Positions 4,690 to 50,090 of a stretch of 64,000 bases of DNA are shown here, piece after piece (the stretch's first letter is position 1; every line of letters starts with the position of its first letter). A program made the translations under genes and the position numbers. The stretch is taken from assembly GCA_034620365.1 (NCBI GenBank), contig JAQGEQ010000295.1:62001-126000 (forward strand), read 5' to 3'. Under the pieces are notes generated by a model. That model was not told where the DNA came from. It saw only the letters and a program-made list of their open reading frames with translations, and made no database searches. The DNA comes from Pegea sp. RAD2-039. Its lineage: Eukaryota; Chordata; Thaliacea; Salpida; Salpidae.

Positions 4690-6860
4690 TACTTTACTAG
4701 AAATCTTCTACTTTTTTCAAAATTTTATTAAACATAGATATCGTTTTGAAGATGCGTTTAGAAAATTATTTTTTCTGTGCTTAAATATATTGGATTTTAC
4801 TAAAATCTTTAAAAATCGTTTGCTTCTGTTATTAACAGATCCATTATTATGTAATTACTAATTAAAATTATTGCTAATTATTGATTACTAATTAATAACA
4901 TATATAAAAGCCTTTTTGTAAAATTGATTTTACAATTTTTTCTTAAATATGATTTATGTTTGAATTGTGGTTATAAATAACAAAATTGATTTTAGTGTGA
5001 TGTTTATGAAGTATTCAAAGACTAAGACAATAACTATTAATTACCGTATATTTTTATTTACAGTTGTTAGCAAAGTTAAAATAATATTTTTGTTATATTT
5101 TTTCTTTATAAAATGATTCCAAATGTTATATGTAATTTTAATCAAATATATTTTCTATTTATTTGTTTGAAACATTAAACTTCAAATTAGAAGGAAAAAG
5201 TCTAGGCGTTGCTTTTAAGTTCAAATAAAATCTAATTATAAACTTTACAATTGTGTTTCTCTATTTGCATGAAATTATGTAATTACTATGTCATCATTCA
5301 TAATATTACTTTACTTTTTATCTAAAGGAAATTGTACTTAACCGAAAAATAACTGTATGTGTTTGTTTATTGTAATTAAATTCTTTAAAATTTAGATAAG
5401 TTAAGGTAAATTATTTTAGTTGTAGAAAAAAATGAATTTATGTTATTTAGTTTTAACTTTTAGACGTTTAATTAAACCTTAAGTTATTTAAATAAACTAA
5501 CAAATAAAGTGTAACCTAAGTGGAGATGAACTTAGCACATTGATAAGTTTGTATATACCTTAATAAATATATACAGCATTTATAAAGATTTGTAGTTTTC
5601 TTGTCGATTTTAAAGACTCTAATAAATACTGTATTACATTAAACTATCATTATTCAAAAGTAAAAAGCTTTTGTCTAAGTTTTGATAATAATTATTTTTT
5701 AATCTATTAGCTAAACAAACTTAAGTGGCTTCTATTAAAAACTTTTAATTTTAATGTAGTTAAGCAACAATTTCTTTTTTGGAGATTAAATTTTTCTATT
5801 TGTTATACTAACTTAGCAAACTTTTATTCAAAACTAGTCTGTATTCAAAAATTGTTTAAATTTAAACTTTACCATTCTATTCTTAGAGATAACTCTTACC
5901 TACTTCCTTATTCAAAATTTTATTAAACATAAATATTTTTGTGAAGATGCTTTTAGAAAATTACTTTTATTGTTCTTAAATAGTTTGAATTTTACTGAAA
6001 CCTTAAAATGGTTTTCTTCTGTTATTAACAGATTCATTATTATGTAAATACTAATTAAATTTTTTAATAATTATTGATTAGTAACTATTAACATATATAA
6101 AAGACTTAATTTTAAGACTGACCTTCGAATTTTTTTTAAATATAATTTATGTATAAATTGTGGTTATAAATTACAAAGTTGATTTAATTGTGATGTTTAT
6201 AAAATATTCCGAGATTAAGACAATGACTTTTAATTACCGTATAATTTTATTTACAGTTGTTAGCAAAGTTAAAATAATATTTTTGTTTGTTCTATTTTTT
6301 TTACAAAATGTTTCCAAATTTTATCTATAATTTTAATCAAATATATTTTCTATTTATTTATTTGAAACATTAAACTTCAAATTAGAAGGAAAAAAGTCTA
6401 GGCGTAGCTTTTAAGTTCAAACAAAATCTAATTATAAACTTTAAAATTTTGCTTCACTATTTGCATGAAATTATGAAATTGCTGTCATTTTTCATAATTT
6501 GACTTTTCCTTTTATCTAAAAAAAATTTTACTGAACCAGAAAACAACTTTATGTGTTTTGTTTTATTGTGTTTTCAGTGGAGATAAGCTTAGCATTTTAG
6601 TTTTTATATACTTTGAAAAAGAGTTTACAGCACTTATGTATATTTTTATATTTCTTGTAGATTTTGAATACTCTAATAAATACTTTATTACAGTAAAATA
6701 TCATTATTTAGTAGTTTAAGCTTTTTTCAAAGTTCTGATAAAAGAGGATTTAAACTAATCATAGTTTTTTTTTGTCAAATTAGAACTAAATTTAGATATT
6801 TATGTAAATTTATTCTTGTGTTATTTTTGTAACAGATTGATTTTTTCAGTTAAGTTTTTA
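4690..6860 (+). repeat. Tandem upstream repeats before gene A
   Basis: Two units with a period of about 1.2 kb lie head to tail. Landmarks recur: AAAATTTTATTAAACATA at about 4718 and 5917, ATTAACATATATAAAAG at about 4895 and 6089, and GAAGGAAAAA-GTCTAGGCGT at about 5191 and 6387. The same blocks recur upstream of genes B (about 15.9-17.9 kb) and C (about 23.4-25.4 kb), where an inner period of about 650 bp is also seen (AAGTGGC-TCT at 16.09 and 16.73 kb). They probably hold the promoters of A-C, because they are the only 5' sequence the three genes share. Confidence 0.65.
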
Positions 6861-6865
6861 CTAAA

Positions 6866-9800
6866 ATGGCTAGACCTAAGAAACTATTTCAAAAAACGAA
6901 AATGGAGAAAAAAAAGAAAGGTAAAATTTTGTTTTGAATTAAGTTGTTTAGTCTTCTACAAACAAGAAAGTAGTAAAACTAAGTAAAGTAGCAGATAAAA
7001 AAGAGAAGTTGAAAGTTTTTGAACTTTTTTGAAGTATAATATAAAGTTGTTATTTTACCAAATCTCTCATATCATTAAGTTTTTATAAGAACTTGTTTAC
7101 AAAACTGGTAGTTAAAACTACTAAGAAATATATGAGACTTCTAACAAAACAAAGTATAGATATTATTGTTTTTGTTATTTATTTATATAAAATTGGTTGA
7201 AAGATCTGTCTTTGAATATTTTAGTAAAATGATGAAAAAATATTTCGTCGTTTTTCTTATATATACAACTGGTTAAAATTGTTAATAATGTTGCAGTCTA
7301 ACGTAAATGACATTTCATTCTGTTCTACTTTTGATCTAAAAACTATGTAATTTCAATTAATCAATTTAAAAATAATTTAAATGTATATTTTTAAGGTAAG
7401 GCTTCAACCAACGTGTATCAAGCTCGTTGTTCAACAGGATATAGAAACTTGCAATATGCTCAAGAAATAGCTCATAACTCTAATGAAATAGGTGAGTTTT
7501 ATTAATAAACCTTTAAAAAGAAAATTTTTAAAGGATTTGTTGCATTAATTTTCTTACTAACAATTAGACCAACAATTAATTATTTAAAGGTACTTGAAAT
7601 TTTTTTTTATTCTTTTTGTTATTTAAAAAGTTACTATTTTAACAAATCAATAAAAAAATAATTTATCTGAATATTTTTCAGCTAAAGCTTCGACCAACGT
7701 CTATCAATCTGGTCGTTCAACAGAAAATATTTATTTTCAACAACCTCCAGAATTAGCTCACTTTTCTGGTGAAACAGGTAAGTTTAATTAAAAAACTTTA
7801 AAACATAATTATTCAACCAAAGTACTTTTTAACAATTAGACTAACAATCAGTGTTTTAAAGGTAATAGAAATTTATTTTAGTCTTTTTTTTTATTTAAAA
7901 ACTTGTAATTTTAACAAATCAATTTAAAAATATTTTGCCTTTCTAATTTTTAACTGAAGCTTCAACTAACGTTTATCAAGCTGGTTCTTCAACAGAAAAT
8001 TTCAATTTTCAACAAGCTCAAGAAATAGCTCACTACTCTGGTAAACAAATTAAAATTCATTAAGTCAAAACAAACAAAAACGAAAAATAACTTATGAAAT
8101 AAATGTACTTACTGAAAACTAGAATATCAATTGAGTTTTAAATATAATTAACATTTCATTTTTTTCGTTTTAATATTTAAAGTTTTTCTAAATTTAATAC
8201 GTCAACTCAAAAATAATTTATTGGTATATTTTTAAGGTAAACCATCGACCAACGTATATCAAGCTGGTTGTCAAACAGGAAGTAACAATGTGCAACAAGC
8301 TCAAGAATTAGCTCACTATTCTTATGAAACAGGTAAGTTTATTTAAAAAATTTTAAAAACATAATTATTGAATTAAATTCAATTTAATTTTTGAATGTAA
8401 TTGATAATTATTTTATTCTTTTTTATATCTAAAAAGCTACTAAATTTAAAAAAATCAATTTAAAAATATTTTATATTTCTATTTTTTAATTAAAGCTTCG
8501 ACCAACGTCTATCAAGCTGGCTGTTCAACAGAAAATATCTATTTTCAACAACCTCAAGATGTACCTCACTATTCTGGTGATACAGGTAAGATTAATTATA
8601 TTAAAACGATAAATTATTGAGTTAAATTACTAACTAACAATTATACTAACAATTAATTTTTTGAAACTAATTGAAATATATTCTATTCTTCTTCATATAC
8701 AACAAGTTAATATCTTTAACAAATCAATTTAAAAATAATTTATCTTTCTATTTTTTAATTAAAGCTTCGAACAACGTCTATCAAACTGGCTGTTCAACAG
8801 AAAATTTCAATTTTCAACAACCTCAAGAATTAGCTCACTTTTCTGGTAAAATACCTAAATCAATTAAACTAATAATAAAAAAACGAAAAAAACTTATCGA
8901 ATAAAATTACTTACTAAAAACTAGAGTAACAATTAAATTTTTAAAATTAATTAACATTCTACAGTGTTTCTTTTAATATTTAAAAATTTTCGAATTCTAA
9001 CAAATCAACTTAAAAATAATTTCTGTGTATATCTTTAAGGTCAGCCATCGGCCAACGTCTACCAAGCTGGTGGTCCAACAGGAATTAACAATGTGCAACA
9101 AGCTCAAGAAGTAGCTCACTACTCTGGTGGAAGGGGTAAGTTTAATTAAAAAACTTTAAACACATAATTACTGAATGAAACTCCTTACTAACAATTAGAC
9201 TAACGATTTATTTTTTGAAGATATTAAAGTTTGTTTTATTCTTTTCTTATATATAAAAAGTTGCTAGTTTTAATAAATCAATTCAAAAATAATTTATCTT
9301 TCTTTATTCAAATAAAGGTGCAACCAACGTCTATCAGGCTGGCTGTTCAACAGAAAATATATATTTCCAACAAGCTCAAGAAGTAGCTCACATTTCTGGT
9401 AAAAAACCTAAAATTAATTAAATTAAAATTAAACAAACAACAAAAATATTGAATAAATTTACTTGCTTAAAACTAAGAGCTACATTTTTCAAAGTACTTA
9501 AGTAACTTATATGTATATTTTGAAGGTAAACCATCGACCAACATTTATCAAGCTAGTTGTCCAACAGGAAATAACAATGTTCAACAAGCTCAGGAATTAA
9601 CTCATTACCCAGGTGGAAGGGGTGAGTTTAATTACACAATCTGTAAAACATAATTATTCAATCAAATTACTTACTAACAGTTAGTATTTTGAAGGTACTT
9701 GAAACTTATTTTATTCTTTTTAATATCTAAAAAATTTGTAATTTTAACAATCAAAATTAAAAATAATTATTCTTTCTATTTTTTAACTGAAGCTTCGACC

Positions 9801-12800
9801 AACGTCTATCAAAATGGTTCTTCAACAGAAAATTTCAATTTTCAACAACCCCAAGAAGTGGCTCACTATTCTGGTAAAAACCTAAAATTAATTAAATTAA
9901 AACTAAAAAAAAACTAAATAAATAAAATTAATAACCAAAGTTCATTGTAACAATTAAACTTTCAAAAGTAATTAACATTCTTCTGTGTTCTTTCTAATAT
10001 CTAACCATTTTCTAATTTCAATAAAAAAATTCAAAAATAATTTCTGTGTATATTTTTAAGGTCAGCCATCGGCCAACGTCTACCAAACTGGTTGTCCAAC
10101 AGGATATAGAAATATGCAACAAGTTCAAGAAGTAGCTCACTATTCTGGTGGAAGGGGTAAGTTAAATTAAAAAATTTAAAAACATAATTTTTGAATCAAA
10201 TTACTTACTAGTAATTAGAGTAACAATTAATTTTTAGGAAGTAATTGAAATTTGTTCTATACTTTTTTATATCTAAACACTTGCTAGTTTTAATAAAGCA
10301 TGTTAAAAATAATTTACTATTCTTTTTTCCAACTAAAGATTCGACTAACGTCTATCAAGCCGGTTCTTCAACGGAGAATATCTATTTTCAACAACCTCAA
10401 GATGTAACTCACTTTTCTGGTGAAACAGGTAAGATTAATTATATTAAAACGATAAATTATTGAGTTAAATAACTAACTAGCAATTATACTAACAATTAAT
10501 TTTTTGAAACTAATTGAAATATATTCTATTCTTCTTCATATACAACAAGTTAATATCTTTGACAAATCAATTTAAAAATAATTTATCTTTCTATTTTTTA
10601 ATTAAAGCTTCGACCAACGGTCACTTACCAAACAGGTAAGTTTAATTAAACAACTTTAAAACATAATTATTCAACCAAAGTACTTTTTAACAATTAGACT
10701 AACAATTAGTGTTTCGAGAGTACTCAAAATTTATTTTATTCTTTTCAGTATTTAAAAAGTTGCTTGTTTTAATAAATCAATTTAAAAATAATTTATCCTT
10801 TTTCTTCAACTAAAGGTTCAACTAACGTCTATCAGGCTGGCTGTTCAACAGAAAATATTTATTTTCAACAATCTCAAGAAGTTGCTCACTTTTCTGGTAA
10901 AAATCCTAAAATTAATTCAATTAGAATAAAAAAAGCAAAATAATTATTGAATAAAATTACTTGTTAAAAACTAAGAGCTGAATTTTAGAAAGTTACTATT
11001 TAAACTTTACTATTTTTAAGATTTTACAATTTTCTAAATTCAGTAAATCAAATTCAAAATAATTTCTGTGTATATCTTTAAGGTCAGCCATCGGCCAACG
11101 TCTACCAAGCTGGTTGTCAAACAGGAATTAACAATGTGCAACAAGCTCAAGAAGTAGCTCACTATTCTGGTGGAAGGGGTAAGTTTATTTAAAAAAGTTT
11201 AAAAATGCAATTATTGATTGAAAATAATTACTAACAATTAGAGTAAAATATAAATTTTTCAAAGTAATTGAAATTTGTTCTATTCTTTTCTTATATCTAC
11301 AAAGTAGCTAGTTTTAACAAATCAATTTAAAATTAATTTATCTTTCTATATTTCTAATAAAGGTTCAACTAACGTCAATCAAGCTGGTTCTTCAAAGAAA
11401 AATATTTATTTTCAACAAGCTCAAGAAGTAGCTCACTACTCTGGTAAGAAACCAAAAATTAATTAAGTTAGAATAAAAAAAAAAAAAACTAATGAACTAA
11501 AAGTACTTACTAAAAACTAGAGTATCAATTACATTTCTAAATATATATAAAATTTTATTTTTTTTATAATTAAAAAATTTCTAAATTTTAATAAGTCAAC
11601 TCAAAAATAATTAATAAGTATATTTTGAAGGTAAACGTTCGACCAAGGTCTATCAAGCTGGTTATCCAACAGGAAATAGAAATGTGCAACAAGCTCAAGA
11701 AGTAGCTCACTATTCTGGTGGAAGGGGTAAGTTTAATTAAAAAACTTTAAAAGCATAATTATTGAGTTAAACTACTTTATGATGATTAGAGTAACAACTA
11801 CAATTTGAAAGGAAGTGATATTTAATCTTTTTTCATATATATCTGAAACGTTAATAAATTTAATAAATCAGTTTAAAGATATTTTTTCGATTGTATTTTT
11901 TTAAGCTAAAGCTTGGAGCAACTTCAATCAAGCTGGTTGTTCAAAAGGAGGTGGAAATATGCAACAAGCTCAAGAAACAGCTCACTACTCTGGTGAGAGA
12001 GGTAAATTAAACTAAATAGAAACTAAGCTGGCATTAAACAAACTATTGAACAAATTTAGTTAATAATAATAGTAAAACTCATTTTTTAAACTAATTTCTC
12101 CTATTACTTACCTAATGCTGAGACTATTTAATAATATATTATTCCAAATAAAAGTTTGGATAAACTTATAGTTGTCGGTTGCTATAAATATCAAAATATT
12201 ATATGAAATTTCATAACAATAAACACTAAATCTACGATAGTAACATTGAATTAATTTAATGGAAAAAATTCTACATTTAGTTTATGTTTCATACTATATA
12301 AATTTGAAAATTCTCTAAGAAGGTTTATAATTTTAATTAAAATATACAAAATATTAGTTTATATAAGACTTTTTCTTAAGCTGGAAGATTAGTATATTTT
12401 GATTCCGATGAAACCCTTACTGATCCTGAAATGACTGATGATGCTGACAGTTCTAATGAAGAAGAAAATATTAGAAAAGCTCAAGAAAAACCTAGATTAC
12501 TTCAGCAGCTAGGTAAAACTCGATTATATATAACGATTGCTTATTATTAGTTTAAGGCAAGTGGTTTAGTTTATCTTGAAAGTAGTAAATGATCTGTATT
12601 TTGACTATTTTATAAACAATTTGTACTGAGAAATCATTAAAATAAAATTTTCTGTTATAGAAGCTTCAACTGGACAAACAGTAAAGAATTTTAAAATTTT
12701 TAAGGATGGTGCTCTGTTAGGAAAAATAGTTACTCTTACTAAAACTCATGATCCAAGAATAAGTAATTTCATCAATTTTTTTTTATAGTAACCAATATAT

Positions 12801-13181
12801 TTGACTTTGACATCAATCTAAAACAAACTGTTGAACTACTATTGTTAGTAAAATAAAGATAGATTAAATTTGACGTTTACTTAAAAGTCCAAATACTTAA
12901 AGGCGTTAAAATTATTAAATCTTCAACAAAATTTTTATCTGTTACATCCTGTTTAAACAGAGAAAACGATATTAATTAAGAAAAACTTCATAAGCGAATT
13001 CAGCAAGGACTTTGGTATCCCTCGTGTTTCAGCAAAAGTTCAGCCTTCAAAATATGGTGAGAACAACTTTTAATTTTATTTTTGATTAATATAATTGTAT
13101 CCTATCAATCTACCGCTAAAAATTGTTTTTTTTTTGCTAGCGCAACCATATATTGGGACAAACTTTTTTAAGGGTTTATAG
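6866..13181 (+). CDS. Gene A: cassette-array protein with 17 repeat exons
   Basis: Unknown family. Exon 1 (6866-6920) encodes the basic start MARPKKLFQKTKMEKKKK. Seventeen repeat exons follow, at 7396, 7688, 7960, 8237, 8496, 8765, 9040, 9318, 9526, 9793, 10061, 10339, 10816, 11083, 11363, 11631 and 11906. They are 81, 90 or 96 nt long and all phase 1-1. Each encodes one unit with the core S-T-N-V-Y-Q-A-G, then T-E-N or T-G-N, then QQ.QE.AHYSG. The constant tail is an acidic exon (12381-12512, LTDPEMTDDADSSNEEEN), an exon at 12661-12762 (GQTVKNFKIFKDGALLGK), one at 12961-13056 (FISEFSKDFGIPRVSAKV), and 13141-13181 ending GTNFFKGL and TAG. Joined, the frame is open for about 649 residues, leaving out a truncated exon at 10608. 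No signal peptide or membrane segment is visible; the basic start could be a nuclear signal. The function is not known to me. Confidence 0.8.
7396..12001 (+). repeat. Tandem array of symmetric mini-exons
   Basis: Exon plus intron is the repeat unit. Introns inside the array are mostly about 160-196 bp. Exon lengths run 96, 90, 81, 96, 90, 81, 96, 81, 96, 81, 96, 90, (truncated), 81, 96, 81, 96, 96. This reads as a trimer 90-81-96 of about 800 bp that was copied, with some copies lacking the 90-nt member. The 96-nt type usually ends YSGGR or YSGET, and the 81-nt type stops at AHYS. Introns of like position resemble each other as closely as the exons do, so whole exon-intron blocks were duplicated. 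Confidence 0.85.
10608..10635 (+). pseudogene. Truncated cassette exon in gene A
   Basis: The first 14 bases (CTTCGACCAACG...) match a 90-nt cassette start. The sequence then jumps to a cassette end (AAACAG followed by GTAAGT). The upstream intron matches the one at 8.59-8.76 kb and the downstream intron matches 7.78-7.87 kb, so this is a recombination scar between two units. At 28 nt it is the only cassette not divisible by three, and its inclusion would shift the frame. Confidence 0.7.
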
Positions 13182-13560
13182 AACGCTACAGCGGTAAGTT
13201 TTTATTTTCTATTTTACCGAATTAAAATAGCAATCTCAAAGTTAGGTCTAAGATATCTTTAAATTAAATTCTATAAATACTAGAAAATAAAGTATATTCG
13301 TAAAAGTACTTACGTTCAGCTTTTAATATTTAACTTCAAGGCTTAGGAAAAAAAATCAAACAACATTTTTGACTAATCTTATATTGTCATAAACAGATTC
13401 TTTATTTTTACAGGTGGAATTTATCAAGATCCATCATATCTTAAGACATTTTTACATTAGTTTAGTCAAGCTAGGTGCATCCACAAGCTATTTTTTGTCA
13501 ATTAATTTTAGTCTTGAAATCAATTATATAGTCGCAGTAAAATAAACCGTGTTATAGTAT
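13182..13560 (+). promoter_or_regulatory. 3' UTR of gene A with an intron and poly(A) signal
   Basis: A donor (GTAAGT) follows the stop by about a dozen bases, and an acceptor ends at 13413. The last exon begins GTGGAATTTATCAAG. AATAAA lies at 13541-13546. The same arrangement recurs after B (acceptor at 20825, AATAAA at 20979-20984) and, diverged, after C. Confidence 0.6.
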
Positions 13561-17974: not shown

Positions 17975-20597
17975 ATAGCTACACTTAAGAAATTATTTCA
18001 AAAAATGATAATAGAGAGAAAAATGAAAGGTATAACTTTGTTTTGAATTAAGTTGTTTAATGCTCTACAAACAAAAAAGTAGTAAAACTAAGTGCAGTAG
18101 CAGATAACAAATAGAAATTGAAAGTTTTTGAACCTTTTTAAAGTATAATATAAAGTTGTTATTTCACCAAATCTCTCATATTATTAAGTTTGTATAAGAA
18201 CTTGTTTACAAACTGATAGTTAAAACTTCTAAGAAATATATGAGACTTCTAACAAAACAATGTATAGATATTATTGTTTTTATTTTTATTTATATTTATA
18301 TAAACTGGTTGAAAGATCTATGTTTAGCATAATATGAAAAAATGATCACAAAATAGTTCGTCGTTTTCCTTAAATATACCACTAGTTAAAATTGTTAATA
18401 AAATAATGTTGCAGTCTAAACTTAATGAAATTTCATTTTTTTCTTTTAGCATATAAAAGTATATGATGTCAATAAATCATTTTCAAAACAATTTCTGTGT
18501 ATATTTTGAAGGTAAACCTTCGACCAACGTCTATCAAGCTGATTTTCCAAGGGGAAGTAACAATGTGCAACAAGCTCAAGAATTAGCTCACTACTCTGGT
18601 GGAAGGGGTGAGTTTAATTACAAAATCTTTAAAACATAAATATTGAATCAGATTACTTTCTAACAATTAATGTCTTGAAGGTACTTGAAACTTAATTTAT
18701 TCTTTTAGTATTTAAAAAGTTTGTAATTTTAACAAATCAATTTAAAAATATTTTGTGTTTATATTTTTAACTAAAGCTTCAACTATCTTCTATCAAGCTG
18801 GTTTTCCAACAGGAAATAGAAATGGGCAGCAACCTCAAGAATTAGCTCACTACTCTGGTAAAAAACCTAAAATCAATTTTATCAAAATTAAAAAAAACAA
18901 ACAAAAACTTATTAAATAAGATTACTGACAAAAATTTTGAATAACAATTAAATTTTTGAAAGTAATTAACACTTCAATTTGTTCTTTTGAATGTTTAAAA
19001 ATATTCTAAACTTAATAAGTCAACTCAAAACTAATTAATGTGTATATTTTTTAGATAAAAATTCGACCAACATCTATCAGGCCGGTTGTCAAACAGAAAA
19101 TATATATTTCAAACAAGCTGAAGAGGTTGCACACTATTCTGGTGATACAGGTGAGTTTGATTATAATAAAAAAAGAAATTATTGAGTTAAACTACTAACT
19201 GATGATTAGAATAACAACTATTATTTGAAAGGAAGTGATATATGATCTTTTTAATATTTATCTGAAACGTTAATAATTTTAATAAATCAGTTTCTAGATG
19301 CTTTTTTGATTGTATTTTTTTAAGCTATAGCTTGGAGCAACGTCAATCAAGCTGGTTGTTCAACAGGAAGTGGAAATATGCAACAAGCTCAAGAAACAGC
19401 TCACTACTCTGGTGCTACAGGTAAATCAAACTAAATAGAAACTAAGCAGGCATTAAACAAACTACTGAATAAATTTAGTTGATAGTAATAACAGTAAAAG
19501 TCAATTTTTAAATATAAATTGTCCTATTATTTACCTAATGCTGAGACTATTTAATAATATACTATTCCATATGAAAGTTTAAATTAACTTTTAATTGTCG
19601 GTTGCTATAAGTATCAAATTATTATATGAAATTTCATAACAATAAATCTATGATAGTAACATTGAATTAATTTAATGGAAAAAATTCTACATTTAGTTTA
19701 TGTTTCATACTATATAAATTTGAAAATTCTCAATTAAAGTTTATAATTTTAATTAGAATAAGCAAAATACAAGTTTATATAAGACTTTTTCCTTAAGCTG
19801 GAATATCTGCCAATTTAGATTTCGATAAAATCCTTACTGATCCTGAAATGACTGATGATGCTGACAGTTCTAATGAAGAAGAAAATATTAGAAAAGCTCA
19901 AGAAAAACCTAGATTACTTCAGCAGCTAGGTAAAACTCGAATAAATATAACGATTGCTTATTATTAGTTTAAGGCAAGTGGTTTAGTTTATCTTGAAAGT
20001 AGTGAATGATCCGTATTTTGACTATTTTATGAACAATTTGTACTGAGAAATCATTAAAATAAAATTTTCTGTTATAGAAGCTTCAACTGGACAAACAGTA
20101 AAGAAATTTAAAATTTTTAAGGATGGTGCTCTGTTAGGAAAAATAGTTACTCTTACTAAAACTCATGATCCGAGAATAAGTAATTTCATCAAATCTTTAT
20201 ATAGTAACCAATATATTTGACTTTGACATCAATCTAAAACAAACTGTTAAACTAATATTGTTAATAAAAAAAAGACAGATTAAATTTGAGGTTTACTTAA
20301 ATGTCCAAATACTTAAACGCCTTAAAATTATTAAATCTTCAACAAATATTTTATCTTTTACATCCTGTTTAAACAGAGAAAACGATATTACTTAAGAAAA
20401 ACTTCATAAGCGAATTCAGCAAGGACTTTGGTATCCCTCGTGTTTCAGCAAAAGTTCAGCCTTCAAAATATGGTGAGAACAACTTTTAATTTTATTTTTG
20501 ATTAATATAATTGTTTTCTATCAATCTACCGCTAAAAATTGTTTTTTTTTTGCTAGCGCAACCTTATGTTGGGACAAACTTTTTTAAAGGTTTATAG
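17975..20597 (+). CDS. Gene B: cassette-family protein with four repeat exons, first ATG lost
   Basis: Exons are 17975-18029, cassettes 18512-18607, 18777-18857, 19055-19150 and 19325-19420, the acidic exon 19798-19929, then 20078-20179, 20377-20472 and 20557-20597 (TAG). Phases match gene A throughout and no stop interrupts the frame. The codon aligned with the start of A is ATA; an in-frame ATG lies nine codons later (MIIERKMK), so a shorter product is possible. The cassettes read KPSTNVYQADF..., STIFYQAGFPTGN..., KNSTNIYQAGCQTEN... and AWSNVNQAGCSTGS.... Repeats and tail are otherwise intact, so B is a live gene with a moved start or a very young pseudogene. Confidence 0.6.
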
Positions 20598-25414: not shown

Positions 25415-28046
25415 ATGGCTAGGCCTAAGAAATTATTTCAAAAAATGATAATAGAGAGAAAAATGAAAAGTAAAACTTTGTTTTGAATTAAGTTGTTTAG
25501 TGCTCTACAAACAAAAAAGTAGTAAAACTAAGTGCAGTAGCAGATAACAAATAGAAATTGAAAGTTTTTTAACCTTTTTAAAGTATAATATAAAGTTGTT
25601 ATTTCACCAAATCTCTCATATCATTAAGTTTGTATAAGAACTTGTTTACAAACTGGTAGTTAAAACTTCTAAGAAATATATGAGACTTCTAACAAAACAA
25701 TGTATAGATATTATTGTTTTTATTTTTATTTATATAAACTGGTTGAAAGATCTATGTTTAGCATAATTTGAAAAAATGATCACAAAATAGTTCGTCGTTT
25801 TCCTTAAATATACCACTAGTTAAAATTGTTAATAAAATAATGTTGCAGTCTAAACTTAATGAAATTTCATTTTTTTCTTTTAGCATATAAAAGTATATGA
25901 TGTCAATAAATCATTTTCAAAACAATTTCTGTGTATATTTTGAAGGTAAACCTTCGACCAACGTCTATCAAGCTGATTTTCCAAGGGGAAGTAACAATGT
26001 GCAACAAGCTCAAGAATTAGCTCACTACTCTGGTGGAAGGGGTAAGTTTAATTACAAAATCTTTAAAACATAAATATTGAATCAGATTACTTTCTAACAA
26101 TTAATGTCTTGAAGGTACTTGAAACTTAATTTATTCTTTTAGTATTTAAAAAGTTTGTAATTTTAACAATTAAATTTAAAAATATTTTGTGTTTATATTT
26201 TTAACTAAAGCTTCAACTATCTTCTATCAAGCTGGTTTTCCAACAGGAAATAGAAATGGGCAGCAACCTCAAGAATTAGCTCACTACTCTGGTAAAAAAC
26301 CTAAAATCAATTTTATCAAAATTAAAAAAAACAAACAAAAACTTATTAAATAAGATTACTGACAAAAATTTTGAATAACAATTAAATTTTTGAAAGTAAT
26401 TAACACTTCAACTTGTTCTTTTGAATGTTTAAAAATATTCTAAACTTAATAAGTCAACTCAAAACTAATTAATGTGTATATTTTTTAGATAAAAATTCGA
26501 CCAACATCTATCAGGCCGGTTGTCAAACAGAAAATATATATTTCAAACAAGCTGAAGAGGTTGCACACTATTCTGGTGATACAGGTGAGTTTGATTATAA
26601 TAAAAAAAGAAATTATTGAGTTAAACTACTAACTGATGATTAGAATAACAACTATTATTTGAAAGGAAGTGATATATGATCTTTTTAATATTTATCTGAA
26701 ACGTTAATAATTTTAATAAATCAGTTTCTAGATGCTTTTTTGATTGTATTTTTTTAAGCTATAGCTTGGATCAACGTCAATCAAGCTGGTTGTTCAACAG
26801 GAAGTGGAAATATGCAACAAGCTCAAGAAACAGCTCACTACTCTGGTGCTACAGGTAAATCAAACTAAATAGAAACTAAGCAGGCATTAAACAAACTACT
26901 GAATAAATTTAGTTGATATAATAACAGTAAAAGTCAATTTTTAAACTAAATTGTCCTATTATTTACCTAATGCTGAGACTATTTAATAATATACTATTCC
27001 ATATGAAAGTTTAAATTAACTTTTAATTGTCGGTTGCTATAAGTATCAAATTATTATATGAAATTTCATAACAATAAATCTATGATAGTAACATTGAATT
27101 AATTTAATGGAAAAAATTCTACATTTAGTTTATGTTTCATACTATATAAATTTGAAAATTCTCAATTAAAGTTTATAATTTTAATTAATATAAGCAAAAT
27201 ACAAGTTTATATAAGACTTTTTCCTTAAGCTGGAATATCTGCCAATTTAGATTCCGATAAAACCCTTACTGATCCTGAAATGACTGATGATGCTGACAGT
27301 TCTAATGAAGAAGAAAATATTAGAAAAGCTCAAAAAAAACCTAGAAAACTTCATCAGCTAGGTAAGACTCGATTATATATAACGATTGCTTATTATTAGT
27401 TTAAGGCAAGTGGTTTAGTTTATCTTGAAAGTAGTGAATGATCCGTATTTTGACTATTTTATAACAATTTGTACTGAGAAATCATTAAAATACCATTTTC
27501 TGTTATAGAAGCTTCAACTGGACAAACAGTAAAGAATTTTAAAATTTTCAAAGATGGTGCTCTGTTAGCAAAAGTTCAAAAATAGTTACTCTTACTAAAA
27601 CTCATGATCCGAGAATAAGTAATTTAGTATCAAAACTTTTTTTTTATAGCTGAACCAATATACTTGACTTTGACATAACAATAACCTAAAAAACTGTTAA
27701 ACTAATATTGTTAATAAAATAAAGACAGATTAAATTTGTTAACCTAAATGTCCAAATAGTTAAAGGCATTAAAATTATTAAATTTTCAACAAATATTTGT
27801 ATCTTTTACATCCTGTTTAAACAGAGAAAACGATTTTTTCATTAAGAAGAACTTCATAACCGAATTCATCAAGGGATTTGGTACCCATCTTGTTTCATCA
27901 ACAATTCAGTCTTCAAAATATGGTGAGAAAAGCTTTTAATCTATTTTTTTGATAATATTAGTGTATACTATGAATCAACCGCTAAAAATTGTTTTTTGGT
28001 GCTAGCGCAACCATATGTTGGGACAAACTTTTTTAAGGGTTTATAG
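25415..28046 (+). pseudogene. Gene C: cassette-family copy, frameshifted
   Basis: Exons are 25415-25469 (ATG present, MARPKKLFQKMII), cassettes 25946-26041, 26211-26291, 26489-26584 and 26759-26854, acidic 27230-27361, 27509-27618, 27825 onward, and 28006-28046. The five 5' exons are almost the same as in B. The exon at 27509 carries an 8-bp insertion relative to A and B, giving an immediate in-frame TAG, and the next exon has a further small insertion. A protein with four cassettes and the acidic block could still be made, but the conserved C-terminal block is lost. Confidence 0.7.
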
Positions 28047-30900: not shown

Positions 30901-30920
30901 TTTAGGTTGCTTGCATTTAG

Positions 30921-36261: not shown

Positions 36262-36326
36262 ATCATTGAAGTTTTATACGCGACTGAGGTTTGCCACAAT
36301 GGTTTTGTCATCAGTTTTACGATCAT

Positions 36327-40759: not shown

Positions 40760-42428
40760 TTAATAACCATATTTTTCAAAAGCAATATTTGAAGGCTGAA
40801 TTGTTGATGAAACACGAGGGGTGTCAAAGCCTTCGCTGAATTCTGTTATGAGGTTCTTCTGAATTAATATCGTTTTCTCTGATTAAAAAGTTTCACAAAG
40901 TTACACTTTGTTAAATATTAATTGCTTTTAAGAGGTTCATATTGTAGCTATTTGATAAAAACTTTATTTAAATCAGTCCTTATTTTATTTAAAATGTTTG
41001 TTATGTTTTTAAAAAATTATTGAGAAGTAACTTTTAATAAATAAAATACTAGTAGAATAATTTTCATTTCCAAAAAGAAGATATAAAACTTAATCTAAAC
41101 CAAAGTGAAACATAAAATTAATTACAAAAAAAGATTTGATGCAATTACCTATTCTCGGATCATGGGTTTTGTTGAGAGTATATAAATGTCCAACAACAGC
41201 ATCACCGCTAAAATTTTTTAAATGCTTTACTTTTTGTCATGTTGATACTTCTACCAAAGAAAAATGATTAAATTTTGTTGATTTCATAGTAAAGAATATT
41301 TTATAGAACTTTAAGAGATACGAAATATCTTCTACTTGCCAAATAAACTAAAAAATTTATTTTAAGCAGTGTTTATTTATAGTTGAGTTTTACCTAGCTC
41401 CTGAATAAGTCTAGGTTTTTCTTGAGTTTTTCTAATATATTCTTCCTAATTGTAGCTGTCTGCATCATCCAACAGTTTAGGATCAGTTAGAGTCTTTTTG
41501 GGATCAGAATCATTAGAGATATCAGCTTAAGAAAAACAAAAGTGATTTAGACACTAATATAATTGTCTATGCAAATGAAAGCTAAATCATACTATTTGAA
41601 AGAATTTTAAAAAGTTTCCATAAAATCAAAAAGTAGAGTCGAAAGAAATTTATAATCATGAATGATATTTTGTATATTATGAAAAACAAACATTTAATCT
41701 GTTATTAGAAGAATAAGTGAATAATTTAAGATGTAAACTTATTTTAGGCATACAAAATTGTGTTTGAAGTCTTGTAACCTTCTTTAAAGTTACATCTAAA
41801 ATTATTATCAACAAATTTTATCAAACAGGAATTGTTATAATTATTATTATAATTATTATTTTTACTAACACACATACGTGTTTGAGAAGAGTAATAAGCT
41901 GATAATTGAGCTTTTTACTTACTTTCACTTGTCATTGAACAGTTAGGTATGTCCTTGTTAGTCATTGCTTTAGCTTAAAACAAGAAAGATAAGTTGATTG
42001 AAAAGAACAAAACAAAAAGCTGAATGTTGATTGCTCAAGTACAAAGCAGTAATAAGTCTCATAGAGAATATTTCGTAAAATTTATGAAACATTCATGAAT
42101 TTTAAATATTTTACAAATTACATAAACACAGTTGTAAACAATTACATTTTTTTATTCTGCTTTGAAAGTCTCATAGATTTTTATACTTTTTTTAATTTTT
42201 TTCAAAAATAATCATTACGATAGATAATTGTTAGATATCAACTTCTTATCTTAAGCTATTTTGAATTTGAAAACCTGTAGATTACTTTTTTAAACAACAC
42301 GTATAAGACCTTTTCTAAAAATATTTGAAAATCTTAATTTCGAAATGGAACTTTTTAACTTGTTTCAGTTTACCTTTTAATTTGTTTTCTGATTTTATTT
42401 CTTGGTTGAATCTTTTATCTCTAGCCAT
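40760..42428 (-). pseudogene. Gene D: single-cassette relative, interrupted
   Basis: On the minus strand, exon 1 is 42428-42374 (MARDKRFNQEIKSENKLK, 55 nt as in gene A). The only cassette is 41973-41878 or, with an internal GTAAGT, 41973-41923. The acidic exon is 41525-41394, then 41250-41149 and 40878-40760 (FEKYGY then TAA). The full cassette has an in-frame TAA, which the internal donor would avoid while keeping phase 1. The acidic exon has a TAG and the next exon a TGA where gene E has Glu and Arg. A peptide of about 60 residues could still be made. Confidence 0.65.
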
Positions 42429-43095: not shown

Positions 43096-43539
43096 CACTG
43101 AAATGTTTTCTCAATAATTATTTTAAATGTGTTTCTTATATTTAAATATGCAAGTATAAGTGTAAGTAATTTAAAGTAGCAAGAACAATAATACATATTA
43201 CGAAGAATATAGATTTTGATTGACTTCTAGCCGGTGTTGTAAAAAGAACGTTATTCATTCTGCTTGTAATTTGTCAAAATTCAGTAAAAACAGTCTAAAA
43301 AAAGCATTTTAATTACTTATGTAAGAATGTTTCTTAGTATCAATCAATAAATGCTTACTGCTAAACCTATTTATAAATATTTTACTGTAATTTTGTAAGT
43401 TACAAAATGCAAATTAACTCTAACAATTTTCAATAAGCTTTTAAAGAATTGTCTTCATATATATATTTGTGGTAGACCAAAAAAATAGCAGTAATTTAAT
43501 AGTATGTTAATCAAACGAATAGCAAAAAAAATAAAAGCT

Positions 43540-44250
43540 TTTTTCGCAAAAGCTTGAAGGCTGAAATGTTGATGAAACACGAGGATTGTCTAAGTCTATG
43601 CTGAACTCGGTTATAAGGTTCTTCTGAATTAATATCGTTTTCTCTGCTTAAACGAGATACAAAAAAGATTTTTTCAGTCTTAAAAGTGAATTATTATTTA
43701 GCTATTTAAACATAACTTAAATTATTCCGTCTTTTTTTTATTAACAATGTTTGGTTTACAAGTAAAAAAGTTATTTACAATCATGTGTATTTACAGCAGT
43801 TTTTATTTAACTTAAAATCTAAGTAAAACAAGTACTAGCTATGCAAAGAGTTGACGAAATTACTTATTCTTGCGTGGGTTTAATAATGTAAAAGAATATA
43901 CAAATTTGCAAAAGAATTATCATCTTTGAACATTAAATCCTCTACTTTTTTCCAGTTGATGCTTCTATCATAAAAAGTGTTATTTCATATCATTAGTTTC
44001 ACAGAATATAATTTTTCATACAATTTTTTGAGACACGAAAAATCCATTAACAGCAAAAAAACTCAATGGTTCGATTTAAATAAGTTTAATAGATTTTTAT
44101 TTATGATAGATTTTTACCTAGTTCCTAAAGTAATCTAGGTTTTTTTTCAAGCTTGTCTAATGTTTTCGTTTTCCTTGGAACTGTCGGCATCATCTGTCAT
44201 TTTAGGATCAGTTAGAGTTCTTTCAGGATTAGATTCGGTGGAGCTTTCAG
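43540..44250 (-). pseudogene. Gene F: 3' remnant of a cassette-family copy
   Basis: On the minus strand it has an acidic exon (44250-44118, ESSTESNPERTLTDPKMTDD, then an in-frame TGA), an exon at about 43.97-43.87 kb beginning EASTGK and interrupted, and the exon at about 43.65-43.54 kb (NPRVSSTFQPSS-like). No exon 1 or cassette was found. Confidence 0.6.
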
Positions 44251-44553: not shown

Positions 44554-46211
44554 TTAATAACCATATTTTTGAAAACCAATATTTGAAGGCTGAATTGTTG
44601 ATGAAACACGAGGGGTGTCAAAGTCTTTGCTGAATTCTGTTATGAGGTTCTTCTGAATTAATATCGTTTTCTCTGATTAAAAAGTTACACAAAGTTTCAC
44701 TTTGTTAAATATTGCTTGCTTTTAAAAGGTTCACATTTTGGCTATTTGAAAAAAAAACTTTATTTAAATTAGTCCTTATTTTATTTAAAATGTTTGTTAT
44801 GTTTTTAAAAAATTATTGAGAAGTAACTTTTAATAAATAAGATATGGAGGTTATTTGTATATTTATTTTCAGTTAGTAAATATTAACTTAATCTAAACCA
44901 AAGTGAAACATAAAATTAATTACAAAAAAAGATTTGATGCAATTACTTATTCTCGGATCATGGGTTTTGTTGAGAGTATATAGATTTCCAACAACAGCAT
45001 CACCGCTAAAATTTGTTAAATGCTTTACTTTTTGTCTTGTTGATACTTCTACTATAGAAAAAATGATTAGATTTTGTTGCTTTCATAGTAAAGAATATTT
45101 TATAGAATTTTCAGAGATACAAAATATCTTCTACTTGCCAAATAAACTAAAAATTTTATTTTAAACCATGACTATTTATAGTTGAGTTTTACCTAGCTCC
45201 TGAATAAGTCTAGGTTTTTCTTGAGTTTTTCTAATATTTTCTTCTTCATTGGAGCTGTCTACATCATCCAACATTTCGGGATCAGTTAGGGTTTTTTTGG
45301 GATCAGAATCATTAGACATATCAGCTTAAGAAAAACAAAAGTGATATAGACACTAATATAATTGTCTATAAAAATGAAAGCTAAATCATACTATTTGAAA
45401 GAATTTTAAAAAGTTTCCATAAAATCAAAAAGTAGAGTCGAAAGAAAATTATAATCATGAATTCTATTTTGTATATTATAAAACTCAAGTATTTAATCTG
45501 ATATTAAAAAAATAAGTGAATAATTTAAGATGTAAACTTATTTTAGGCATACAAAATTGTGTTTGAAGCCATGTAACCTTTTTTGAAGTTCCATCTAAAA
45601 TTATTATCAACAAATCTTATCGAACAGGAATTGTTATAATTATTATTATAATTATTATTTTCTAATATTACACTTACATGTTTGAGAAGAGTTATTAGCT
45701 GATAATTGAGCTTGTTCCATACTTTCACTTGTCATTGAACAGTCAGGTAATTCCTTGTTGGTCATGGCTTTAGCTTAAAACAAAAAAGATAAATTGATTG
45801 AAAAGAACAAAACAAAAAGCTGAATGTTGATTGCTCAAGTACAAAGCAGTAATAGGTCTCATAGAAAATATTCAGTAAAATTTATGAAACATTCATGAAT
45901 TTTCAACATTTTACAAATTACATAAACACAGTTGTAAACAATTACATTTTTTTATTCTGCTATCAAAGTCTCATAAAGTTTTACACTTTTTTAAATTTTT
46001 TATCAAAAATAATCATTACGATAGATAACTGTTAGATATCAATTTCTAATCTTAAGTTAATTTGAATTTGAAAACCTGTAATTAAGTTTTTTAAACAACA
46101 TGTATAATACCTTTTCTAGAAATTTTTGAAAATATTAACTTCGAGATAGAACTTTACCTTTTAGTTTGTTTTCTAATTTTATTTCTTGGTTGAATTTCTT
46201 ATTTCTTGCTA
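44554..46211 (-). CDS. Gene E: single-cassette family member, nearly intact
   Basis: On the minus strand, exon 1 is 46211-46157 (ARNKKFNQEIKLENKLK, with ATA at the expected start). The cassette is 45773-45678 (KAMTNKELPDCSMTSESMEQ). The acidic exon is 45324-45193 (LTDPEMLDDVDSSNEEEN), then 45048-44947 (RQKVKHLTNFSGDAVVGN) and 44672-44554 (LITEFSKDFDTPRVSSTIQ, ending QKYGY, TAA). Lengths of the first four exons equal those of gene A and all phases agree, giving 167 codons with no internal stop. The single cassette keeps T-N, C-S, QAQ and the terminal S-S pattern but has lost NVYQ. ATG codons within the cassette could serve as start. Confidence 0.6.
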
Positions 46212-46844
46212 TTTGGTTAAAATTCTAACGGATTATTGTAGTCTGATGAAAAAACTCTTAATAAAATTGTTTGCACATTTCATCATATAATTTCAAGACG
46301 ACAAAAATTAAAATTCATCGATATCATGGATATTAAAAATGTTTATTAAATTCTTCATTGTATTTTATCCTCTACTTAGTTTTTGATAAAATCAATCAAT
46401 TTAAAAATCTTCAATTAGTGATTATACAAAAAATGTAAAAATATTCTAAATTTAAGCTTCAAAATCATGTTCAATCAGTAGGTAACCTAATAAAAATATC
46501 TTAGGAAAGTCTACAAGCTGGAAATGAAAGAAATTACCTTTTATATCATGGTGAAAAATATTTTGAATATAAAAGCAAAAATTTTAGCTTAAATTAAGAA
46601 ATTAAAGTTACATAATAAATTAATAAGTTACGGCTTATACTAGTTATCATCAAAACAATTAAATCTCTAATCCAACATAGTAGAAAATAGCTAAGTCTTT
46701 CCTATAAATACAAAACGGTTTTCATAATAAAAATAGAAAAAAATCGGTCAGATATAAAGTTTCTTTATACAGAGCTTTTGAATAGTTTCTCATTATCATA
46801 AGTCTATTTAAGCGAAACCATAATTTTGTTTAAGACTTAGATGA

Positions 46845-46882: not shown

Positions 46883-47229
46883 ACTGAAAAGTTTTCTCAA
46901 TAATTCTTTTAAATGTCTTGCTTATATTTAAAAAACAAGTATAAGTGTAAGTAATCAAAAATATCAAGAACAATAATACATTTTACGAAGAATATAGATT
47001 TTTGATTGAATTCTGCCATTGTTGAAATAAAAATGTTATTCATTCTGCTTGTAATTTGTAAAAACTCAGTAAAAACATTCTGAAAAAAGCATATAAATTA
47101 GTTTTAAAGAAGCGTGTACAGAATTGTCTTCATGTAGAAACTTGTGCTAGACCAAGAAATAGCAATAATTTAATAGTATGTTAATCAAACGAATAGCGAA
47201 AAAAGCTTTTACTTTTTTCGCAATAGTTT

Positions 47230-48092
47230 GAAGGCGGATATAATGATGAAACACGAGGGGTGCCCAAGTCTATGCTGAATTCTGTTATAAAGTTTATTCT
47301 AAGAACATTTTTAAATCCTCTACTTTTTTCCAGTTGATGTTTCTATCATAAAAAGTGTTATTTTATATCATTAGTTTCACAGAATAGAATTTTTCATACA
47401 ATTTTTTAAGACACGAAAAATCCATTAACAGCAAAAAAACTAAATGGTTCGATTTAAATAAAATTTAATAAATTTTTATTCATGATAGATTTTTACCTAG
47501 TTCCTGAAGTAATCTAGGTTTTTTTCAAGCTTGTCTAATGTTTTCGTTTTTCTTGGAGCTGCCGGCATCATCTGTTATTTTAGGATCGGTTAGAGTTCTT
47601 TCAGGATCAGAGTCGGTTGAGCTTTAAGCTAAATAAAAATACAAGTTATTTAGAAACTTACATATTAATTATAAAAATAAAGCCACCAAACTGTTTTATA
47701 GAATTCAAGAGATATAAAAATAAAATAAAAGTCTATAAATATAAAATTCATTCTATTGATGTGATGCTATAAGAATAAGTATAACGTTTAAAATGTATTT
47801 AAAACTATTTTGGGCATACAGAGTTGTACTTGAAGTCTTGAAGCTTTATTTGAAGGTTCATCAAAAATTTATTCGACATTTAATATCAATAATTTATTTT
47901 TTTTTAAATGATAACCAAATACTTTATTCTTATTCAAACTGTTATAAAAGAAAATTAATTTACAATTTATCTACTTTGTTTATAATCATTCCGTTCCTTA
48001 AAAACTTCTCTGTTTGAGAAGAGTGATAAGCTGTTAGCTGGGTTTTTTTCTTATTGAATAACCAGCATTAGTGAGGTTGGTTGAAGCCCTAG
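47230..48092 (-). pseudogene. Gene G: decayed cassette-family copy
   Basis: On the minus strand, the cassette (48092 to about 48000) begins RASTNLTNAGYS and then shifts frame before a QL-AYHSSQT-like end. The acidic exon (about 47630-47497) is frameshifted, and the last exon (about 47.30-47.22 kb) retains only the stretch around TPRVSS. F and G correspond to each other as D and E do, so a block of roughly 3.4-3.8 kb holding two copies was duplicated. Confidence 0.6.
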
Positions 48093-50090
48093 CTTAAAAC
48101 AAAACAGATAATTTGTTTCTACTAACTAGATAAATACAACCTTTTCGGATGCATTGAAAAGAACAAAACAGAAAGCTGAATGTTAATTACTCAAATACAA
48201 ATAAGTAATCTGATTAACAATAACCATTTATATTTAATCAACAAGCAATAATCTATGCTTTGTAAGTTTTATTATTGCGATAGCTTAAGGAGTAAATGAC
48301 TTTTTTAGTTTATATCCAACAACGTAAAACCAGGAAAAAAACTTATTTTCGAGTTTTGATGCATTTTATGAACAAGTTAAAAAAAGATAAGAAAATAATT
48401 GCTGAAAAATTGTTAGAAATCTAACTACAGAGCAGTTATCACTAAATAAATGTGATTTAAATGAGTAGCTTCATTTATCAAAAACTTTAATTAATTACAC
48501 TTAATTTTTATAAGTTGTTGACATTAACATATTCTACGTATTATTTTACAGAAAAAGAGATTTAGTTTAAAATAATTTGAACACCTTGGTACAGAAAGAA
48601 GATATAGAAAATGCTTAAAGTAATTTATTCACATTTTCGAGCCAAAGGTTTTTTGTAGGACTGCTTTCGTTTAGTGTCCTGTTTAGTTTTAAAAATTCAA
48701 TCTATAAACTGTTAAATAAATTCAACAAGCTAAATATTATAAGACAGTTACTTTAATTTTCGTTTGAATCTATTTCTAGATTTATTTGATTAAATTTTAT
48801 TCATGTTTTAGAAATTCGTAGCATAACAGTTTCTAAAAACTAATTATGAAATATTTTGTTTTTAGTGGTAGTATACCAAGTGTGCAATTATATTAAATCA
48901 TTGATATTAATTTTATAAAAATCAAGATATAATAATTAGAGAAAAAAGTACCTAATTTTTTATGAAATAAGATTTTTTTAAAGAATTTTTTTGAATTTAT
49001 TAATAATCGAAATCAAACGCAGGAGTGTCAAATAAGCATTATTTATAGAATCATTGTGCTGAGAGCCTTTTTAGTTTTAAATTTGGAGATTTTTTTTCAC
49101 TAAGCAGAGTTTGGTTAATTTATGGTAAAAACGATTAGTTATTAGATAATCTAAAATTTTAAAGAAAAAAGTATTTTTAAAAGTATAGCTTTTTTTTCAA
49201 AGACAATAAAAAAAATAGATGATAGTTTTTGATAGAAAGGTTTTACTTTGTGCTTCAGTATTGTATAAATAATAAGGTTATTTATATTAATTTTAATATA
49301 TTATTTATAAATTTGAATAAAATTTATTAGCAAAGTTAGTATGGCTATAAATAATTTTAAATTAGATAAATAAAATTATAAATAAATTTTAATTATTTAT
49401 AGTTAAATAATTATTAAGAATATGGATAATTTTCTAATAAGTTATTTAGCATATTTACTCTATAAATCTAAGTAATAAGCTTGTAAACAAATTATTAAAT
49501 CAGATAAACTATTATTATAGATCTATTCTGATAAAAAGTTCTGATCATAGTTGATTATAAAAATTTTCAACGGATTAATGGTATTATGATAAATTTTATA
49601 TATAGCATGAAATACCTTTATTGAAATTTGGAAATATTTATATTTTTTTGGTTCATGACACTATCTTTTAAAATATCATAGAATTATATTTAGCATATAT
49701 TCGTTTTTTTTTCTTTTTAAAGGTAGAGATTTTTATCTTATATGTTTATCAACAGTTATTTTTAGTTTATATTATAAAAATATGTTGTATTATCTCTTAT
49801 AACAACAAATCAGAATTATTTATATAAGAAATATAATTTCAATTAACTCACTATAATTAATTTAAACTATTAATAGTTGAAAAATTTTTGTTATTTTATT
49901 TATTTTTTGATTAATTTACTTTTAATTTATATGAAAAAGTTAACAAATTTTTGTCTAGTTTTGAATATTGGCTTTTTTGTTTGAATTATTTACCAGATAT
50001 ATATAGTTTTAAATTCAAATTGAAATTAAATTTTAAATTAATACTATTTTTATAAAAATTTTTCTAACCTTTTTTCAGGATTCCGTTTTT
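48093..50090. other. Gene-free, very AT-rich stretch
   Basis: Long runs of A/T and TAATTATAA-like simple sequence, mainly in 48.9-50.0 kb. I see no exon, RNA gene or repeat shared with the family clusters. Confidence 0.6.

What the first reader, a model, noticed from the sequence alone, without database searches (positions are those of the whole stretch)
6866..13181. Gene built from 17 interchangeable phase-1 mini-exons
Every full cassette is 81, 90 or 96 nt, begins and ends in phase 1, and encodes one copy of an NVYQ...QQ.QE.AHYS unit. Any subset could be skipped or duplicated with the frame intact, between a constant basic N-terminus and a constant acidic plus C-terminal tail. The layout recalls flatworm micro-exon genes and other diversity loci, but the repeat is of no family I know and there is no signal peptide. 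The exon structure is seen directly; combinatorial splicing is inference.
Basis: partly seen in the sequence, partly recalled or inferred. Interest (0 to 1): 0.88.

Follow-up and report, generated by a model that had tools for sequence, protein, structure and literature searches.

The report
Gene of seventeen repeated small exons
A gene of unknown function, probably from a small animal, has copied one small exon until it has seventeen, each coding the same short protein unit; shorter relatives nearby suggest how it grew, but nothing in the DNA shows that the exons are mixed and matched.

Summary
A plus-strand gene at 6866-13181 has 22 coding exons, 17 of them homologous 96/90/81-nt cassettes, all introns phase 1, no stop in 493 complete cassette codons. 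It belongs to a small family. Two neighbours carry four cassettes (17975 and 25415). Minus-strand relatives at 40.7-48.1 kb include an open one with a single cassette and a dead copy. A relative on contig C51 has no cassette but the same phase-1 plan. The series 0, 1, 4, 17 and block duplications point to growth by unequal exchange. The uniform phase is shared with the cassette-free relative, so frame-neutral cassettes are no evidence for combinatorial splicing. A dead 28-nt cassette with good splice sites would truncate the protein if included. Cassettes are under modest constraint (dN/dS 0.31-0.62). No signal peptide or credible relative was found (Pfam, PDB, viral contigs). Most likely this is a lineage-specific intracellular repeat protein made from constitutively joined cassettes; decay or alternative splicing is not excluded. 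Expression, splicing, function and organism were not determined. Aphid bicycle/megacycle genes and schistosome MEGs are the closest layouts, but defining features of both fail.

The parts
6866..6920 (+). Copy 1 exon 1, basic N-terminus MARPKKLFQKTKMEKKKK (net +8 over the first 19 aa)
7396..7491 (+). Cassette 1 (96 nt, A type)
7682..7777 (+). Cassette 2 (96 nt; in-frame alternative acceptor gives 90)
7960..8040 (+). Cassette 3 (81 nt, B type)
8237..8332 (+). Cassette 4 (96 nt, A type)
8496..8585 (+). Cassette 5 (90 nt, B type)
8765..8845 (+). Cassette 6 (81 nt, B type)
9040..9135 (+). Cassette 7 (96 nt, A type)
9318..9398 (+). Cassette 8 (81 nt, B type)
9526..9621 (+). Cassette 9 (96 nt, A type)
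9793..9873 (+). Cassette 10 (81 nt, B type)
10061..10156 (+). Cassette 11 (96 nt, A type)
10339..10428 (+). Cassette 12 (90 nt, B type)
10608..10635 (+). Dead cassette remnant, 28 nt, good AG and GTAAGT sites; inclusion shifts the frame and ends the protein after 390 aa
10816..10896 (+). Cassette 13 (81 nt, B type)
11083..11178 (+). Cassette 14 (96 nt, A type)
11363..11443 (+). Cassette 15 (81 nt, B type)
11631..11726 (+). Cassette 16 (96 nt, A type)
11906..12001 (+). Cassette 17 (96 nt, terminal type AKAWSNFNQ..; alternative acceptor gives 90)
12381..12512 (+). Copy 1 acidic exon (44 aa, net -7)
12661..12762 (+). Copy 1 C-terminal exon EASTGQTVKNFKIFKDGALLGKIVTLTKTHDPRI
12961..13056 (+). Copy 1 C-terminal exon KKTILIKKNFISEFSKDFGIPRVSAKVQPSKY
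13141..13181 (+). Copy 1 last coding exon AQPYIGTNFFKGL and stop
17975..20597 (+). Copy 2: same plan, cassettes 18512-18607, 18777-18857, 19055-19150, 19325-19420; start codon reads ATA, frame otherwise open
25415..28046 (+). Copy 3: same plan, cassettes 25946-26041, 26211-26291, 26489-26584, 26759-26854; ATG present, frame broken in the C-terminal exons
44577..46212 (-). R1: relative with one cassette (45773-45678), an extra exon (45594-45538), acidic and two C-terminal exons; start reads ATA; frame open over the six exons modelled, last exon not placed
40784..42428 (-). R2: like R1, ATG present, in-frame stops; dead copy
43524..44250 (-). Partial relative (acidic and C-terminal pieces with stops)
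47217..48100 (-). Partial relative (degenerate cassette-like stretch near 48.1 kb, seen by eye only; acidic and C-terminal pieces with stops)

Best explanation
This is a protein-coding gene, probably of an animal, that grew by serial duplication of one small symmetric exon inside a young, clustered gene family. The founder was probably a gene for a protein of about 140 aa with all introns in phase 1 and no cassette (a relative of that form survives on contig C51). One cassette exon is present in the minus-strand relative R1, four in copies 2 and 3, and 17 plus a dead one in copy 1. Growth was by unequal exchange between similar exon-plus-intron units of about 270 nt, often in blocks of two or more. 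The cassettes are most likely all joined constitutively into one 651-aa protein that stays inside the cell: basic start, 17 low-charge Q/N/Tyr-rich units predicted mostly disordered, acidic linker, small basic C-terminal block. The likeliest mode of action (weak inference) is a multivalent binding or self-associating scaffold whose strength follows the number of units. Shown here: anatomy, phases, paralogues, modest constraint on the cassettes, no hydrophobic N-terminus. Inferred: constitutive splicing, direction of growth, intracellular location, scaffold role.
For: Exons, splice sites and phases. No stop in 493 codons; dN/dS 0.57 over all 136 copy-1 pairs, 0.31 for the B type (36 pairs of nine cassettes), 0.62 for the A type (21 pairs of seven; cassette 17 left out of both groups). 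Exons differ less than the introns that follow them in 99 of 105 pairs (15 units; cassettes 12 and 17 left out), mean 20% against 31%. C51 relative: 41% identity over the C-terminal 79 aa and the same exon plan, all phase 1. One-cassette R1, four-cassette copies. Mean identity of units (18, the remnant counted as one) is higher at even than at odd shifts (2, 4, 6, 8: 78.2, 78.6, 77.6, 79.0%; 1, 3, 5, 7, 9: 75.1, 76.5, 75.8, 77.1, 75.2%), and a 1.1-kb block 7656-8776 matches 9500-10619 at 80%. Cassette region: Q+N 23%, Y+F 11%, below the charge-hydropathy boundary. The most hydrophobic 9-residue window of the first 40 aa averages -0.3.
Against: No transcript: expression and splicing are untested. 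The 28-nt remnant carries good splice sites in short introns and would truncate the protein if used. Constraint between gene copies is weak: copies 1 and 2 differ at 16 of 371 C-terminal exon sites (4.3%) against 22 of 429 in their introns (5.1%), and at 62 of 369 cassette sites (16.8%) against 114 of 530 in cassette introns (21.5%); copies 2 and 3 differ at 27 of 368 C-terminal exon sites (7.3%) against 40 of 424 (9.4%). That is expected if copies 2 and 3 are dead, but it gives little support for constraint on the C-terminal block. Both four-cassette copies look broken (start or frame), so decay of the whole family is possible. Direction of growth is inferred without an outgroup species. The scaffold role rests on composition only.
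Confidence: 0.58

Rival explanations
1. Combinatorial splicing locus: subsets of the 17 cassettes are included to give many isoforms.
For: All 17 cassettes are frame-neutral; GTAAGT-like and GTAAAA-like donors tend to alternate along the array; the dead remnant must be skipped or trimmed to make the full protein.
Against: Phase-1 uniformity is shared with the cassette-free relative. GTAAAA donors also serve exon 1 and the acidic exon, so they do not mark optional exons. The cassettes are close variants of two types, a poor source of diversity. No transcript data.
Confidence: 0.15
2. Decaying gene cluster: copy 1 is, or is becoming, a pseudogene and its array a drifting repeat.
For: Copies 2 and 3 and R2 carry start, frame or stop defects, and R1 has lost its ATG; the dead remnant lies inside copy 1; exons diverge little less than introns between gene copies.
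Against: Copy 1 itself is open over 651 codons with 42 of 42 GT and AG ends of its 21 introns present; its cassettes have dN/dS below 1.
Confidence: 0.19
3. Secreted effector or surface protein family of the MEG, bicycle or KQY kind.
For: Many small same-phase exons, clustered paralogues, no recognisable relatives in the collections searched.
Against: No hydrophobic N-terminus; exon sizes and motifs differ. In copy 1 the acceptor with the best pyrimidine tract before the ATG leads into an in-frame TAA, and so do the matching sites of copies 2 and 3 (read); but an AG nearer the ATG leaves the frame open, so an upstream coding exon is not excluded.
Confidence: 0.08

Closest known systems
Aphid bicycle genes and the megacycle gene (PMC9168663, passages read)
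   Same: Many small internal exons nearly all in one phase; the paper says bicycle internal exons start at codon position 2, which is what is seen here; megacycle proteins consist of repeated motifs; bicycle proteins resemble no known proteins.
   Different: [quoted passage not shown] here no signal peptide was seen, there is at most one cysteine per cassette, and the cassettes are 81-96 nt and clearly homologous to each other.
Schistosome micro-exon genes (PMC10526429, passages read)
   Same: Serial small exons mostly a multiple of three between constant ends.
   Different: MEG exons are 6-81 bp, mostly 15 bp, introns up to about 5 kb, products secreted and alternatively spliced; here cassettes are 81-96 nt, copy-1 introns 84-475 nt, no signal peptide seen.
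Pea aphid KQY/KHI cassette effectors (PMC7495047, abstract and passages read)
   Same: Gene made of many miniature exons; small family.
   Different: KQY1a: 37 exons, 33 of 15 bp or less, 45.7 kb, secretory signal. Not met here.
Long repeat proteins grown by tandem exon duplication (general knowledge, recalled)
   Same: One repeat per symmetric exon, growth by unequal exchange.
   Different: The repeat is not one I could match, and shorter stages are still present beside it.

Membership tests
Schistosome micro-exon genes | Exons mostly a multiple of three | tested here: met
   All 17 cassettes are 81, 90 or 96 nt
Schistosome micro-exon genes | Very short exons, mostly 15 bp, and long introns | tested here: not met
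   Cassettes 81-96 nt; copy-1 introns 84-475 nt; family range from passages of PMC10526429
Schistosome micro-exon genes | N-terminal signal peptide | tested here: not met
   No hydrophobic stretch in the first 40 aa; hydropathy only, no dedicated predictor, and an upstream exon is not fully excluded
Schistosome micro-exon genes | Alternative splicing of central exons | not testable with these tools
   No transcripts held
Aphid bicycle genes | Many small internal exons in one phase | tested here: met
   20 of 20 internal coding exons begin at codon position 2; compared with passages of PMC9168663
Aphid bicycle genes | Signal sequence and CYC motifs | tested here: not met
   Hydropathy; at most one Cys per cassette. 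The content of the CYC motif is recalled
Pea aphid KQY/KHI | Secretory signal and exons of 15 bp or less | tested here: not met
   family data from the abstract of PMC7495047
Any Pfam family | Score above the curated cut-off | tested here: not met
   Full protein: 8 families at E up to 10, best 22.3 bits against cut-off 27. Cassette array alone: 6 families at E up to 0.01, best 8.8e-5, none over its cut-off; four column-permuted controls gave 1, 0, 2 and 1 families, the best at 2.3e-5

The most novel reading that the evidence does not exclude
A somatic diversity gene without secretion: an intracellular multivalent protein whose number and order of sticker cassettes is chosen by splicing, with the 28-nt dead cassette acting as a poison exon that switches between the full-length protein and a truncated 390-aa array lacking the C-terminal block.
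Probability: 0.1. Interest if true: 0.75.

Novelty: new member of a known kind. Interest (0 to 1): 0.42.

Why it matters
The locus and its relatives hold several stages of one process at once: a relative with no cassette, one with a single cassette, two with four, and one with 17 plus a dead unit, all with the same exon phase. That makes it a compact case for how symmetric-exon arrays grow and decay, and it shows that frame-neutral cassettes can follow from phase uniformity of the whole family and need not be a sign of combinatorial splicing. If the cassettes did turn out to be chosen by splicing, it would be a diversity gene that is not secreted.

Tried and rejected
Known family: Pfam, PDB by sequence and by profile, and viral contigs gave nothing credible. 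The array's weak Pfam matches lie below their curated cut-offs and name unrelated families. In the control the real array had more of them (6 families at E up to 0.01) than any of four permuted arrays (1, 0, 2, 1), but the best single E-value was a control's (2.3e-5 against 8.8e-5). The controls permute columns within each cassette length, so they are a little less uniform than the real array. PDB: one match at E 0.15 for the full protein, none for the C51 protein, two at E above 2 for the cassette profile, eight for the C-terminal profile, best a SNAPIN homologue at E 0.18, not followed. The provisional C51 join met IMP_cyclohyd at E 0.0056, below its cut-off.

Plain satellite: rejected, since exon cores are stop-free and more conserved than the spacers. 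In 23 further stretches of this genome (about 220 kb; L004 and L005 left out) one serial repeat was stronger than the window's, a 113-bp satellite, not a multiple of three. Weaker signals in L014 and L015 were checked only for tandem repeats.

Alternative splicing from donor strength: looked at the donors; the weaker type also serves constant exons, so nothing follows.

Organism: the COX1 family search found nothing. An 18S gene was read but there was no reference to compare it with; passages of an 18S paper on rotifers (PMC8194223) gave no usable sequence. A literature search with assembly size and contig number (12 of 150 papers listed) did not name it. E2F and (below cut-off) CAP-Gly matches of neighbours fit an animal.

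The structure prediction tool was not used: it takes only unchanged translations, and these proteins are spliced.

Full report
What was checked. The window is G000:C53:62001-126000 of an unnamed 105.7-Mb genome in 387 contigs. Its composition is (21-32% G+C per 2 kb); a 198-kb sample of other stretches is 26.7% G+C. Reading 5800-14200 and modelling exons by AG/GT ends and frame gives a gene from 6866 to 13181 with 22 coding exons and a 651-aa product. The 17 cassettes are nine of 96 nt, two of 90 nt and six of 81 nt. Each of the 21 introns interrupts the frame after the first base of a codon.

More than chance. At this base composition 8.8% of random codons are stops; none occurs in 493 complete cassette codons (about 2e-20). 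Nei-Gojobori estimates by my own script give dN 0.21 and dS 0.37 over all 136 pairs of copy-1 cassettes (ratio 0.57), 0.31 among nine B-type and 0.62 among seven A-type cassettes (cassette 17 left out of both groups). The pairs are not independent. The exon differs less than the following intron in 99 of 105 pairs from 15 units (unit 12 was dropped because its intron holds the remnant, and cassette 17 has no cassette after it). Units fall into A and B types that tend to alternate, and mean unit identity is slightly higher at even shifts. Together with an 80%-identical 1.1-kb block (7656-8776 against 9500-10619) this fits duplication of blocks of two or more units.

A dead cassette. At 10608-10635 lies a 28-nt remnant with a good acceptor and donor. 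Its inclusion would shift the frame and end the protein after 390 aa; a 12-nt form using a weak internal donor would keep the frame. So the gene makes its full protein only if this piece is skipped or trimmed; whether it is, cannot be seen from DNA.

The family. A DNA query around cassette 16 finds 21 of 21 matches on contig C53, all inside the window. A six-cassette protein query finds 25 of 26 matches there, the other being C194 at E 2.1, not followed. The C-terminal query finds 19 of 20 matches in the window and one on C51 at E 0.07. The tool scores only the best candidates, so these are lower bounds. Copy 2 (17975-20597) and copy 3 (25415-28046) have four cassettes each. Copy 2 reads ATA at the start and is otherwise open; copy 3 keeps ATG but its C-terminal exons are out of frame. 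Copies 2 and 3 are 98-100% identical over their 5' and cassette parts and diverge downstream, whereas copies 1 and 2 are about 80% identical in the last four cassettes and up to 99% downstream: copy 2 is a mosaic, as unequal exchange or conversion would leave it. Across an imperfect inverted duplication between about 30 and 40 kb lie minus-strand relatives. R1 has exon 1, one cassette, an extra 57-nt exon, the acidic exon and two C-terminal exons in an open frame with ATA at the start; R2 has the same plan with stops; two more are partial.

The cassette-free relative. C51:60768-61935 is a gene of six exons and 142 aa with a similar basic first exon, an exon of 42 nt that resembles the extra exon of R1 by eye, an exon in the place of the acidic one, and the three C-terminal exons, all introns phase 1. 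Its C-terminal block is 41% identical to copy 1 (one residue of that row was provisional). The uniform phase therefore belongs to the whole family, and most simply came before the array. This is the main reason to read the frame-neutral cassettes as a consequence of ancestry and of what tandem duplication can tolerate, not as a design for combinatorial splicing.

The protein. The first 40 residues have no hydrophobic stretch. Q+N make up 23% and Y+F 11% of the 509-aa cassette region, whose mean hydropathy lies below the charge-hydropathy boundary (predicted disordered). The acidic exon has net charge -7 over 44 aa and the C-terminal block net +10 over 79 aa, just above the boundary. In copy 1 the acceptor with the best pyrimidine tract upstream of the ATG leads into an in-frame TAA, as do the matching sites in copies 2 and 3 (read). 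That argues against a missed signal-peptide exon but does not exclude one, because an AG closer to the ATG leaves the frame open. No credible relative was found in Pfam, PDB or viral contigs. The array's sub-threshold Pfam matches are more numerous than in four permuted controls (6 against 0-2 families) but none reaches its cut-off and the best E-value was a control's. Other invertebrate proteomes could not be searched.

How it may work. Shown: an open, spliced-looking repeat gene under modest constraint in a clustered family. Inferred: all cassettes are joined; the protein stays in the cell; the repeated Q/N/Tyr-rich units act as many weak binding sites whose number sets the strength of binding or self-association. 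The last step is composition-based and weak.

Against. No transcripts. Between copies 1 and 2 exons differ only a little less than introns (C-terminal 4.3% against 5.1%; cassettes 16.8% against 21.5%), and both four-cassette copies look damaged, so the cluster may be decaying. I raised the decay rival slightly on this account.

Comparison with known systems. Passages of PMC9168663 describe aphid bicycle genes with many small internal exons starting at codon position 2, signal sequences and CYC motifs, and a megacycle gene of more than 100 microexons with repeated motifs. [quoted passage not shown] Passages of PMC10526429 and the abstract and passages of PMC7495047 describe schistosome MEGs and pea aphid KQY/KHI genes. 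The layout here is most like bicycle/megacycle genes, but signal peptide and motif fail; MEG and KQY exon sizes fail. PMC13041983 (structures of bicycle proteins) was seen in a search listing only. The listings of searches for serial small-exon or symmetric-exon genes held no title that names such a gene with this repeat; the repeat's letters were not searched for, most listed papers were not opened, and the library lacks most subscription papers.

Verdict. A real and unusual-looking gene with a clear growth series, of a known general kind (tandem exon duplication), with a repeat I could not match and untested expression.

Noticed in passing
window 30321-40133: Imperfect inverted duplication (blocks 66-79% identical). 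It holds two copies of an unknown serine-rich gene (32419-33222 + and 37838-36330 -) without Pfam match at E 0.01 for the pieces tried; the cassette genes lie on one side and the one-cassette relatives on the other.
   Followed up: partly
window 899-2593 and L002 1570-3247: Tandem copies of a gene with a weak CAP-Gly match (E 3e-4, below the cut-off; window copy tested) flank the cluster; it looks CYLD-like by eye.
   Followed up: partly
window 57630-57983 and L003 1691-2044: An E2F-type gene (E2F_CC-MB, E 5.5e-21, window copy tested) has a second copy further along the contig on the other side of the cluster.
   Followed up: partly
L016 1229-9187 (contig C51 near 41-49 kb): A 113-bp satellite of about 70 copies, 91% matching, about 12 kb from the cassette-free relative.
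   Followed up: no
B-type cassettes of copy 1: The motif ENIYFQ resembles the tobacco etch virus protease site (recalled); taken as coincidence.
   Followed up: no
L010 6312-10000: Long open frames that look like a LINE-type retroelement by eye.
   Followed up: no
window 13541-13595: Two AATAAA words (13541 and 13590), possible poly(A) signals about 360-410 nt after the copy-1 stop, and a likely 3' UTR intron donor just after the stop (read).
   Followed up: no
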